A DNA stretch of 64,000 nucleotides from Chryseobacterium sp. Leaf394 (GTDB lineage: Bacteria; Bacteroidota; Bacteroidia; Flavobacteriales; Weeksellaceae): contig NZ_LMQH01000010.1 of the NCBI RefSeq assembly GCF_001424105.1, positions 213,671 through 277,670 on the forward strand, read 5' to 3'. A model generated the notes under the pieces. That model was given only the letters and a program-made list of their open reading frames with translations. It was not told the DNA's origin and made no database searches. Position 1 is the stretch's first letter. Each line of letters opens with the position of its first letter. Shown piece by piece: positions 55,393-57,710 of the stretch. A program made the position numbers and the translations under genes.

Positions 55393-55920
55393 ATGAAATC
55401 TGTTTCACAAATCAATTTCGAGAGAAGCATTGAAAAAAAATGGTTGATTTAGAAAGAGTCATTCTTTGATAAATTTGATACCTTCATTCATATCTTAATT
55501 GCTTTAGCTTTATGTTATATGACTTATTTTATAGTGATCAGTCAACAAACGTTTAATGAAAATGAAAGACTTTTTATCTGCGTATTTATTTTTGCATCAT
55601 TATTAACTATTTTGATTGCTTTCAAAAAAGTGACTGAGAAGAGGTTGAAAATTGTTGAAACAAAAAATACAGAGCAGGAAAACAAAAACCAATTAAAGAA
55701 AATTTCTCACGAAATAGGATGGTTTGAATTTCGAAACGATCTGAACATTTCAATATTTTATGAAGATGCTGGAGATTGGAATAAATACACGAAGATTTTT
55801 CTATTTAAAGATAATAAGATTTATTATACTGTATTGACTGAAAGATTCAGACTAAACTACCCAACTTTCACACAAAATAATGCTGTGAAAAAACTTTTAA
55901 AAAATTTAACTGTAATCTGA
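55393..55920 (+). pseudogene. Small two-helix membrane protein gene with in-frame TAG
   Basis: From ATG at 55393 the frame reads MKSVSQINFERSIEKKWLI, then TAG at 55450-55452, then continues open to 55920 as KESFFDKFDTFIHILIALAL and on through two membrane segments (TM1 about 32-52, TM2 about 63-80) and a ~95-residue soluble tail. The annotatable remainder starting at the ATG at 55519 begins in the middle of TM1, which argues that the longer frame is the ancestral gene. Function unknown. Either a disrupted gene, a sequencing error, or stop readthrough. Confidence 0.6.
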
Positions 55921-56023: not shown

Positions 56024-56059
56024 ATAAAAATCAGCAGAAAAATAAATTTCCTGCTGATT
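56024..56059 (-). terminator. Terminator of the protease/prodomain-like unit
   Basis: AATCAGCAG (56029-56037) pairs with CTGCTGATT (56051-56059); on the minus strand the stem is followed by TTTTTATA. It ends the two-gene unit 25 bases after the small gene. Confidence 0.82.
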
Positions 56060-56083
56060 CAAATCATTAAATAGGCATTGAGA

Positions 56084-56287
56084 TTAAATGCTGTTGTCTC
56101 TCTCTTCTTCCACACTCAAAACTCCGTCAATATCTTTGATGTCTTTCATTTTGAGTTTTTCAGGATCGATGATGATAATTCCTATGGCATCTAAAACCTG
56201 AAGAATGGTCGCTTCTTTTTTTCTGAGGTTTTCAGACACCTTGTCCAGAGTTCCCTCTTCTACTGATATAAGCCATTTTTTTTCCAT
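56084..56287 (-). CDS. Stand-alone subtilase-prodomain-like protein (putative I9-type inhibitor)
   Basis: A 67-residue cytoplasmic protein with no signal peptide. Its order of segments fits the beta-alpha-beta-beta-alpha-beta prodomain/inhibitor I9 fold: KKWLISVEE (strand), TLDKVSENLRKKEA (helix), VLDAIGIIIIDPEK (strand), KMKDIKDI (helix), DGVLSVEEERD (strand). VLDAIGIIIIDPEK closely resembles VLDKLGIIILNEKP in the N-terminal region of the protease encoded four bases upstream. A cognate inhibitor or folding aid supplied in trans is the best inference; no direct proof in sequence. Confidence 0.72.
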   Translation of the reverse strand: MEKKWLISVEEGTLDKVSENLRKKEATILQVLDAIGIIIIDPEKLKMKDIKDIDGVLSVEEERDNSI

Positions 56288-56291
56288 GATA

Positions 56292-57710
56292 TTATTTTGC
56301 TATGGGTCCGATAGGATCAATTGGAAATCTTGGATTTACAAAAGGTGGGATTTCTTTGATCGGAAATTTAATTGGCGGATTCATAATAAGTCTTGTTTTC
56401 GTCGGTGCCTGCACAAGGCCAGCCCCTGCATCTCTGGCAGGTAACGATAGCGCTTTTGCTGTTGAAGTAAGTTTTCTCCAAAGATTAATGCCTCTCAAGC
56501 CACTGGCTTGAGCCCAAAGCGCAGCAATACCTGCTACGTGAGGGGTTGCCATACTGGTTCCGTTCCAGGTTGCATATCTTGCTGGAAGTTTTGTAGAAGA
56601 ATACACTCCCACACCTGGACCTACGATATCTACTGCACCATAAGTAGGATACAATCCTCCGTTAGAGAAATTCGCAATGTTCATATTGATGTCCACTGCA
56701 CCTACAGCCATTATTGATGGGCAGTTTGCAGGATGCATTACCTGTTTTATCAAACCTGGTCTTGAAGAGTCATTTCCTGCGGCAGCAATAATCAGTGTGC
56801 CTTGAGCCAAGGCTCTGGCTGCGGCGGTTTCGTATACTGCAGAAAATCCTGTTCCTGAATACAGTCCACGTAAAGACATGCTTACAATATCACATCTGTT
56901 GGCAATTGCCCAGTTGATTCCGGCCAAAATCCCTGCATCAGGCCCGGATCCTGAATTGCTCAGTACTTTACCTATGTATAATTGTGCGGCATAAGCAATC
57001 CCGTATCTTTCAGAAGCAGAAGGCGAACTTTGAGGGCCGCATGCTGTACCCGAACAGTGCGTACCGTGTCCCTGCAAATCCTGAGTGGCTTCCCCCGAAA
57101 TGAAACTTTGATGAATAACAGATCTTCCTGCAAAATCCGGATGATTAAAGTCTAAACCGGTATCTAAAACGGCAACTTTTATTCCTGCTCCGTTGTAAGG
57201 ATTGTATTTTAAAATCGTTGTAGGAGTTACATTGGTCGCCTTCAATCCCCATGTGGAACCAACAGATTCTGCATCTAGCTGATTTTCTTCCTCTCCACTG
57301 TATTCTTCCTCCTCATTTCCCAGAAGCATTTCAGACAGTTGGTTTACAGCATCTCGGTAGCCGGAAACATATTTTTGTGTAGATTCGTCAACCATAGAAT
57401 TGATGGCATATACCATTCTTTCGCGTTCTACGATCATATTATTTTCCGTCATCGCACTGATGGCACCGTCGAGTTTTGGTTTTTCATTCAAAATAATAAT
57501 GCCTAATTTGTCTAAAACGATTCCGTCTGTTTGATTAAGGTCATCAGAAGTAAAAAATTCACTCTCAAATTCAAGTGAGCTTTTAATATTAAGACCCCCA
57601 ATTTCATTCATTTGTGAGACAGCATTCTGATTGTTCATGCTTTCAGGTAGTACCACAAGGTATCTTCCTGTAAATTCTTCTTTTTCCTGATTTTTGTTGT
57701 TCTTTGACAT
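56292..57710 (-). CDS. S8 family subtilisin-like serine peptidase, no signal peptide
   Basis: A 472-residue subtilase. The N-terminal ~100 residues form an I9-like prodomain (GRYLVVLPESMNNQ ... VLDKLGIIILNEKP ... MIVERERMVYAI), followed by an acidic linker (EEEEYSGEEENQ). Catalytic triad: Asp in VAVLDTGLDFNHPDF (about 180), His in GHGTHCSGTA (about 218), Ser in WNGTSMATPHVAG (about 385); oxyanion Asn in AAAGNDSSRPG. The ATG at 57710 is preferred over 57782, whose extension is basic and not signal-like. No T9SS domain or signal peptide, so it appears intracellular. The small prodomain-like gene follows by four bases. Confidence 0.92.
   Translation of the reverse strand: MSKNNKNQEKEEFTGRYLVVLPESMNNQNAVSQMNEIGGLNIKSSLEFESEFFTSDDLNQTDGIVLDKLGIIILNEKPKLDGAISAMTENNMIVERERMVYAINSMVDESTQKYVSGYRDAVNQLSEMLLGNEEEEYSGEEENQLDAESVGSTWGLKATNVTPTTILKYNPYNGAGIKVAVLDTGLDFNHPDFAGRSVIHQSFISGEATQDLQGHGTHCSGTACGPQSSPSASERYGIAYAAQLYIGKVLSNSGSGPDAGILAGINWAIANRCDIVSMSLRGLYSGTGFSAVYETAAARALAQGTLIIAAAGNDSSRPGLIKQVMHPANCPSIMAVGAVDINMNIANFSNGGLYPTYGAVDIVGPGVGVYSSTKLPARYATWNGTSMATPHVAGIAALWAQASGLRGINLWRKLTSTAKALSLPARDAGAGLVQAPTKTRLIMNPPIKFPIKEIPPFVNPRFPIDPIGPIAK

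What the first reader, a model, noticed from the sequence alone, without database searches (positions are those of the whole stretch)
56024..57710. Leaderless subtilase with a co-encoded stand-alone prodomain-like protein
Seen: an S8 peptidase without signal peptide, then four bases later a 67-residue gene, then a terminator, so the two form a closed unit. The small protein has the strand/helix order of an I9 prodomain, and its VLDAIGIIIIDPEK segment closely resembles VLDKLGIIILNEKP in the protease's own N-terminal region. Known: subtilase prodomains inhibit and fold their enzyme in cis. Inference: a cytoplasmic protease kept silent by both a cis prodomain and a trans inhibitor, released by degradation or binding of the inhibitor, as in a regulated or toxin-antidote-like protease system.
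Basis: partly seen in the sequence, partly recalled or inferred. Interest (0 to 1): 0.72.

Follow-up and report, generated by a model that had tools for sequence, protein, structure and literature searches.

The report
Leaderless protease with its own guard
A bacterial protein-cutting enzyme without an export signal is encoded together with a tiny partner shaped like the enzyme's own inhibitory "pro" segment, and this two-gene unit recurs in distant groups of bacteria, which suggests a little-recognised way to keep a dangerous protease silent until it is needed.

Summary
On the minus strand a signal-less S8 subtilase (56292-57710, 472 aa) is followed after 4 bases by a 67-aa gene (56084-56287) and a hairpin terminator. 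The small protein is predicted to have a subtilisin-prodomain fold (pLDDT 88); its family profile finds subtilisin propeptides first in the PDB and aligns in register with the protease's own N-terminal domain. Pairing is conserved: 49 of 49 family proteases in 148 same-genus genomes, and 39 of 41 testable relatives in six phyla. In three cyanobacterial genomes the genes are unlinked (in one, 2.5 Mb apart) yet both present; 5 of 5 cyanobacterial genomes found by the small gene alone have the protease, against 0 of 20 without it. Best reading: a dedicated trans inhibitor (perhaps also a foldase) of a leaderless protease. The closest known system is PopC/PopD of Myxococcus xanthus, a leaderless subtilisin held by a co-operonic inhibitor that is degraded on starvation; homology could not be tested because no Myxococcus sequence was reachable. 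Inhibition itself is untested. Ten of ten annotated plasmid records call the small gene "hypothetical protein".

The parts
56292..57710 (-). Leaderless S8 subtilase, 472 aa, 50.3 kDa
   Evidence: ORF; Pfam PF00082 E 3.5e-43; hydropathy of the N-terminus, mass; start supported by relatives
57396..57677 (-). Cis prodomain-like N-terminal region, about residues 12-105
   Evidence: hhalign with the small-protein family, probability 95.1; in the model of relative L053 this region sits with the catalytic domain as in pro-subtilisin E, Z 38.7; no Pfam hit by itself
56505..57191 (-). S8 catalytic domain core (Pfam match, residues 174-402) with Asp183, His215, Asn313, Ser386
56288..56291 (-). 4-base gap between protease stop and small-gene start
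56084..56287 (-). Stand-alone I9-prodomain-like protein, 67 aa, 7.6 kDa
   Evidence: AlphaFold2 pLDDT 88.2, strand-helix-strand-strand-helix-strand; VIA-align best rows are subtilisin propeptides, NapD tied; family profile against PDB sequences; dN/dS
56087..56125 (-). Last strand and tail GVLSVEEERDNSI of the small protein; Glu60 and Glu62 match the helix-capping pair Glu69/Asp71 of the BPN' propeptide
   Evidence: BPN' residues as cited in PMC6993865 (passage); the matching of positions is my alignment
56029..56059 (-). Intrinsic terminator-like hairpin

Best explanation
The 67-aa protein is a stand-alone subtilisin-propeptide-type (I9-type) partner that acts in trans on the co-encoded protease. 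Shown by computation: I9-like fold, kinship with the protease's own prodomain, near-strict pairing, and presence in the same genome when unlinked. Inferred: the two are translated together; the cis prodomain guides folding and covers the active site first; the trans protein binds the same face (its two carboxylates capping two catalytic-domain helices, its tail lying along the substrate cleft) and keeps the enzyme inactive or retained in the cell until the small protein is removed, as PopD is removed from PopC in Myxococcus. It may also help folding. The substrate and the releasing signal are unknown.
For: Fold: pLDDT 88.2; VIA-align best rows are Tk-subtilisin propeptide 2z57_B (Z 9.5, 1.9 A over 64 residues) and, tied, BPN' propeptide 3cnq_P (Z 9.4, 2.3 A over 66). 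Sequence: the profile of 36 family members against 177,635 PDB sequences gave 35 hits at E <= 10; the first 17 are 16 chains of one protein, Tk-subtilisin, matching mostly profile positions 32-65, and one 81-residue chain of 'PAM Protease' (best E 8.3e-4); subtilisin BPN' and E propeptides follow at E 0.09-0.6. In 395 Bacteroidota genomes it gave 5 hits at E <= 0.001, four directly beside the protease and the fifth (E 4.2e-4) inside the prodomain region of a lipoprotein-like subtilase. The acid pair is kept in 30 and 31 of 36 trans proteins and in 31 and 31 of 31 cis domains. Pairing: 49 of 49 in the genus; 39 of 41 testable relatives (gaps up to 312 bases); other S8 genes 0 of 18, one of them with only 67 bases of sequence behind it; independent plasmid records 7 of 11 at E <= 6.1e-8. 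Unlinked but co-occurring: G557, G558, G586. Of cyanobacterial genomes found by the small protein alone, 5 of 5 have the protease, against 0 of 20 without it (Fisher p 1.9e-5, relatedness not corrected). PopC/PopD literature: PMC6434023, PMC4320627.
Against: No activity data. Foldseek gave no match below E 0.007; its best four rows are RfaH and the PmtCD exporter, and the first propeptide is rank 5; NapD ties the propeptides in VIA-align. Only 4 of 36 members touch Pfam Inhibitor_I9 (best E 0.0086), as many as touch NapD (best 0.0012); the window protein hits neither, and the Inhibitor_I9 model finds nothing in the whole window genome at E <= 0.01. The trans profile does not find the cis domains in the loci at E <= 1 by HMMER, and the cis profile finds nothing in PDB sequences. 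In the read-through model of relative L053 the cis prodomain, not the trans domain, lies where pro-subtilisin's prodomain lies, so both cannot hold that site at once; where the trans domain lies could not be read. The tail is not uniform. Of 3 Deinococcus and 1 Vibrio plasmid loci read, the profile finds the partner ORF in none clearly (one at E 0.006). One second protease (G303) has no small gene behind it. One MAG (G559) has a protease at a contig end and no small gene.
Confidence: 0.7

Rival explanations
1. The small protein is mainly a trans foldase (intermolecular chaperone): it helps the protease fold and inhibits little or not at all.
For: Propeptides of mesophilic bacterial subtilases act as both chaperone and inhibitor (PMC10580911, start of abstract). 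Overlapping or near-touching start and stop codons in many loci would supply it at once.
Against: The protease keeps its own N-terminal prodomain in the 31 sequences aligned, and in the model that domain occupies the canonical place, so a second foldase seems unnecessary.
Confidence: 0.13
2. A toxin-antidote module: free protease harms the cell and the small protein protects against it, with addiction or defence as its purpose.
For: The unit appears mobile: the window protease is 77% identical to a Pedobacter one, against 37-39% to a second lineage of its own genus; some copies lie on plasmids, and one Vibrio plasmid copy lies near dndB and a DNA methyltransferase gene.
Against: The PADLOC matches are a generic subtilase model and, weakly, IetS. 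Among the 15 largest neighbour clusters shown, none besides the protease recurs across phyla except antisense ORFs inside it; neighbours were not screened for defence genes. The pair persists when unlinked in cyanobacteria, unlike an addiction module. A truncated protease keeps its small gene (L114).
Confidence: 0.05
3. The small protein is an unrelated ferredoxin-like binder, such as a NapD-like chaperone for export, and its I9 look is only a common fold.
For: NapD scores Z 9.4, 4 of 36 members weakly match Pfam NapD with a better best E-value than Inhibitor_I9, and Foldseek ranks RfaH first.
Against: No NapD chain is among the 35 PDB sequence hits, headed by subtilisin propeptides; the only hit away from a family protease among the 5 in 395 genomes is in a subtilase prodomain; in-register profile match to the cis prodomain.
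Confidence: 0.07
4. The small protein is the protease's substrate, for example a peptide precursor whose C-terminal tail is cut off as a signal.
For: The tail is a distinct conserved segment in part of the family (12 of 36 with a Pro-Pro or Pro-Ser-Pro segment).
Against: 23 of 36 tails end within eight residues of the acid pair, about where a propeptide's inhibitory tail would end; the listed tails show no hypervariable core; the prolines lie about where a cut would fall in the propeptide register (inference).
Confidence: 0.04

Closest known systems
PopC/PopD of Myxococcus xanthus (popCD operon)
   Same: Leaderless subtilisin of about 50 kDa (PopC 50.8 kDa, here 50.3) whose N-terminal part has no recognisable domain; inhibitor gene in the same operon, directly downstream by the coordinates in the paper; protease-inhibitor pair (PMC6434023, passages and sections; PMC4320627, passages).
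[quoted passage not shown]
   Same: Small separate proteins with the subtilisin-propeptide fold that act on subtilases; SUB1-ProM lies beside subtilisin-like genes (PMC6993865, passages).
   Different: Eukaryotic; SUB1-ProM has a predicted secretory signal; here bacterial, signal-less by hydropathy and encoded next to a leaderless protease.
Bacillus intracellular subtilisin Isp1 with its inhibitor IPI
   Same: Intracellular subtilisin with a separate protein inhibitor (PMC3901451, abstract).
   Different: IPI has an immunoglobulin-like fold; intracellular subtilisins use a pro-peptide with a LIPY/F motif (PMC6220982, abstract), absent here.
Subtilisin BPN' / Tk-subtilisin propeptides (I9 type, Pfam PF05922)
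   Same: Fold, acid pair in the last strand, kinship by profile.
   Different: Those propeptides are parts of the protease chain; here one copy is in cis and one is a separate gene.

Membership tests
I9 (subtilisin propeptide-type) inhibitors | Fold strand-helix-strand-strand-helix-strand like subtilisin propeptides | tested here: met
   (best Z 9.5, 1.9 A over 64 residues; the common ferredoxin-like fold, NapD tied at 9.4); Foldseek weak
I9 (subtilisin propeptide-type) inhibitors | Sequence kinship with known propeptides | tested here: met
   Only at family-profile level:
I9 (subtilisin propeptide-type) inhibitors | Pfam Inhibitor_I9 match of the protein itself | tested here: inconclusive
   Window protein: no hit at E 10; 4 of 36 members at E <= 1, best 0.0086; none in the window genome at E <= 0.01
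I9 (subtilisin propeptide-type) inhibitors | Inhibits a subtilase | not testable with these tools
   Needs an assay
PopC/PopD system | Leaderless ~50 kDa subtilisin with an N-terminal region unknown to Pfam | tested here: met
   PopC description from PMC6434023 introduction passage
PopC/PopD system | Inhibitor gene directly downstream in one operon | tested here: met
   Gene order and terminator, (co-transcription itself not measured); popCD order from PMC4320627 passages
PopC/PopD system | Sequence homology to PopC and PopD | not testable with these tools
PopC/PopD system | Stringent-response-dependent degradation of the inhibitor; export through a TonB-dependent transporter | not testable with these tools
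   Needs experiments
Bacillus-type intracellular subtilisins (ISP) | LIPY/F pro-peptide motif | tested here: not met
   No LIPY or LIPF in the protease sequence
Toxin-antitoxin systems | Toxicity of one gene neutralised by the other | not testable with these tools
   Needs expression tests

The most novel reading that the evidence does not exclude
PopC/PopD is not a Myxococcus speciality but one instance of a multi-phylum class of leaderless subtilases, each held silent by a dedicated I9-type guard protein and freed by removing the guard. The class includes cyanobacteria in which guard and protease are encoded megabases apart, so the guard is a true trans regulator, and it would explain how PopD works.
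Probability: 0.4. Interest if true: 0.75.

Novelty: new variant of a known kind. Interest (0 to 1): 0.6.

Why it matters
Leaderless subtilases are potentially dangerous to the cell that makes them. A conserved, separately encoded propeptide-type partner in six phyla would be a general bacterial control device, now annotated as "hypothetical protein" in all ten annotated plasmid records read. It would turn a single developmental case (PopC/PopD) into a testable class, give PopD a mechanism, and point to Bacteroidota, where transporters with the domain architecture of the one that exports PopC dominate (PMC6434023, section read).

Tried and rejected
Single-sequence searches with the 67-aa protein found nothing convincing outside its own genome (PDB, best E 0.13; 59 genomes including its own; genome contigs). 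This first looked like an orphan gene; it was a sensitivity limit, overturned by starting from the protease.

Pfam, NCBIfam and PADLOC gave no family for the window's small protein; NCBIfam gave only scattered weak hits for its relatives. The N-terminal-domain profile found nothing in PDB sequences. Foldseek on the small model was weak and led by other folds.

MAFFT put the small proteins onto the cis prodomain when they were aligned with a read-through chain, so that alignment was not used for folding; in-frame loci were used instead. The resulting model does not show where the trans domain sits, because coordinates and inter-domain confidence were not available.

Neighbour clusters recurring across phyla, apart from the protease and antisense ORFs inside it, were not seen among the 15 largest shown. 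No Bacteroidetes-type promoter (motif recalled) was found upstream by a simple pattern. Phage records hold S8 matches at E <= 1e-20, none covering 80% of the query (10 of 23 records listed); their surroundings were not examined. The 68 further plasmid records of the looser search were not examined, nor two Vibrio records.

Ten literature searches in the held open-access library: the listings seen (some capped, for example 25 of 567 and 15 of 49) show no paper that by title or abstract start describes this bacterial pair outside Myxococcus; subscription papers, including the original PopD paper, were not seen. PopD in PMC9961632 is an unrelated Pseudomonas protein.

A first version of the co-occurrence count (8 of 8) included three genomes reached through the protease itself; it is replaced by 5 of 5.

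Full report
What is there. On the minus strand a 472-aa S8 subtilase without a hydrophobic leader (56292-57710) is followed after four bases by a 67-aa gene (56084-56287) and a strong hairpin with a T tract. The neighbours are a clpB-like gene (name recalled) and a 133-aa unknown on one side and an outer-membrane beta-barrel gene on the other.

What the small protein is. Alone it has no convincing database hit. Starting from the protease instead gave relatives in many genomes, with a small ORF of about 64-85 aa behind nearly all of the closer ones. I aligned 36 of the small proteins found (A1). The A1 profile has 35 PDB sequence hits at E <= 10, headed by 16 chains of Tk-subtilisin and one 81-residue chain of 'PAM Protease' (best E 8.3e-4; the Tk match covers mostly profile positions 32-65); BPN' and subtilisin E propeptides follow with E 0.09-0.6. 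AlphaFold2 gives a confident strand-helix-strand-strand-helix-strand model (pLDDT 88.2, pTM 0.74). Its best VIA-align rows are subtilisin propeptides (2z57_B Z 9.5, 1.9 A over 64; 3cnq_P Z 9.4), but NapD ties at 9.4 and RfaH reaches 8.5, and Foldseek ranks RfaH and PmtCD above the first propeptide, so fold alone would not decide. The profile of the protease's own N-terminal region (A2, 31 sequences) aligns with A1 in register (probability 95.1, E 3.4e-8 for one comparison), though the A1 profile does not find the cis domains at E <= 1 by HMMER. In 395 Bacteroidota genomes the A1 profile had five hits at E <= 0.001: four next to the protease, and one (E 4.2e-4) inside the prodomain region of a lipoprotein-like subtilase. 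That last hit was not sought and is independent support for the I9 relation.

Signature residues. The BPN' propeptide caps two catalytic-domain helices with Glu69 and Asp71 (PMC6993865, passage seen). The positions that I take as equivalent are acidic in 30 and 31 of 36 trans proteins and in 31 and 31 of 31 cis domains. In the window protein these are Glu60 and Glu62. Tails differ: 23 of 36 end within eight residues of the second acid, and 12 of 36 go on with a Pro-Pro or Pro-Ser-Pro segment. That the prolines would make the tail hard to cut is inference from the propeptide register.

Pairing. Same genus: 49 of 148 genomes have a family protease at E <= 1e-30, and all 49 have a small ORF behind it (for 30 loci; for the other 19); in one (L114) the protease itself is truncated. 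Named genomes: of 58 relatives, 42 are family members (L038-L079). One (L077) ends at a contig end; of the 41 testable, 39 have the small ORF on the same strand (the profile was iterated on these loci, so this count is not independent), with gaps up to 312 bases (L068). One of the 39 is L078, whose protease lacks its catalytic-serine part. By record title (phylum names recalled) these are Bacteroidota, Alphaproteobacteria, Cyanobacteria, Planctomycetes, Actinobacteria and Acidobacteria, the Planctomycetes and Acidobacteria only as MAGs, plus one Methanosarcina MAG that may be misbinned. The 16 distant S8 loci (L080-L095) and two other S8 genes of the window genome (L003, L004) have none, though L080 has only 67 bases of sequence behind its S8 gene. 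Independent check: in 11 plasmid loci read out of 13 matching records (two Vibrio records not read), the A1 profile hits the ORF behind the protease in 7 at E <= 6.1e-8 and in one at 0.006; the remaining three have an annotated ORF there that the profile does not find. All ten annotated records call it "hypothetical protein" (the eleventh has no annotation). A second protease of G303 has no small gene behind it, and the Chryseobacterium lineage typified by L008 has small proteins too divergent for the A1 profile, counted above by position, length and likeness among themselves.

Unlinked pairs. Two cyanobacterial proteases without an adjacent small gene (L061, L066) come from genomes (G557, G558) that each hold exactly one small-gene hit elsewhere, with no protease within about 1.5 kb. 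A third (G586) has protease and small gene 2.5 Mb apart on one contig. Of 19 genomes behind loci searched with the A1 profile, 18 have a hit; the miss, G559, has a protease cut by a contig end. Searching 244 cyanobacterial genomes by the small protein gave 6 with it, one of them the centre G567, which had been reached through its protease. The other five (G586, G599, G605, G617, G653) all have the protease, and 0 of 20 genomes without the small protein (20 of 238 were searched) have one at E <= 1e-50 (Fisher p 1.9e-5 without correction for relatedness). Co-occurrence without linkage argues that the small protein acts in trans on the protease.

Mobility. The window protease is 77% identical to a Pedobacter one (small protein 54%), but only 37-39% to the second lineage in its own genus (small 20-27%). 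The pair therefore follows the protease lineage rather than the species, and seems to be transferred as a unit.

How it may work. Shown: kinship of cis and trans domains; pairing. In an AlphaFold2 model of relative L053, read through its stop so that both domains were in one chain (mean pLDDT 78.2), the cis prodomain and catalytic domain align together with unprocessed pro-subtilisin E (Z 38.7, 333 residues, 3.1 A). So the cis copy takes the canonical site in that model; the trans copy's place could not be read. Inferred: the trans protein takes that site when the cis domain has moved away or been cut, or competes with it, keeping the enzyme inactive or inside the cell. Removing the trans protein would release it.

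Comparison with the known. In M. xanthus, PopC is a 50.8-kDa subtilisin without signal peptide, with an N-terminal part of no recognisable domain. PopD forms a complex with it and inhibits its secretion; the stringent response leads to PopD degradation; PopC is found in the periplasm and is secreted at full length with the help of the TonB-dependent transporter Oar (PMC6434023: introduction passages, sections 6, 15, 16 and 29 read). popD follows popC in an operon, and FtsH-D is important for PopD degradation (PMC4320627, passages). The predicted popD start lies about 1437 bases after the popC start (227 + 1210, from those passages), about the length of popC expected from 50.8 kDa, so the two nearly touch, as here. 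The window protease is 50.3 kDa. A phylogenetic survey places PopC in a subgroup of its own among subtilisins (PMC9549277, passages). I could not reach a Myxococcus sequence, so whether PopC and PopD belong to this family is open. Stand-alone I9-type inhibitors are known in eukaryotes (PMC6993865, passages). Bacillus Isp1 has an inhibitor of another fold (PMC3901451, abstract).

Verdict. A real, conserved two-gene unit; best read as a leaderless subtilase with a dedicated I9-type trans inhibitor, PopC/PopD-like in layout. The biochemical step, inhibition, is not shown.

Noticed in passing
L137 (G558:C109:127876-128088), L142 (G557:C78:54517-54735), L152 (G586:C1:162477-162686): Cyanobacterial genomes in which the small gene lies away from its protease; in G586 the two are 2.5 Mb apart on one contig.
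   Followed up: yes
L008:2772-4129 and the same place in 24 other loci: In the second Chryseobacterium lineage, two conserved upstream ORFs (no Pfam match for those of L008) precede protease and small gene in 25 of 25 loci with flanks, apparently a four-gene cluster.
   Followed up: partly
L078:3200-4480: Brocadiaceae MAG: protease gene lacks its catalytic-Ser part and runs in frame into the small ORF; a degraded copy or an assembly fault.
   Followed up: no
L114 (G033:C2:348620-350880): The protease is reduced to a fragment but the small ORF behind it is open.
   Followed up: no
L007/L011 (G303): Two family proteases in tandem with one small gene between them.
   Followed up: no
L123 (Vibrio alfacsensis plasmid pSEA2): A related S8 gene with a 75-aa partner lies near dndB and a DNA cytosine methyltransferase gene; the partner is not recognised by the profile.
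   Followed up: no
L012:3167-4409 and Pedobacter loci such as L038:2454-3759: Two divergently transcribed neighbour genes are shared by 14 Chryseobacterium and Pedobacter loci but are not beside the pair in the window, which suggests transfer of a longer block.
   Followed up: partly
window 55519-55920 (+): 133-aa ORF next to the pair, convergent with it, without Pfam match.
   Followed up: no
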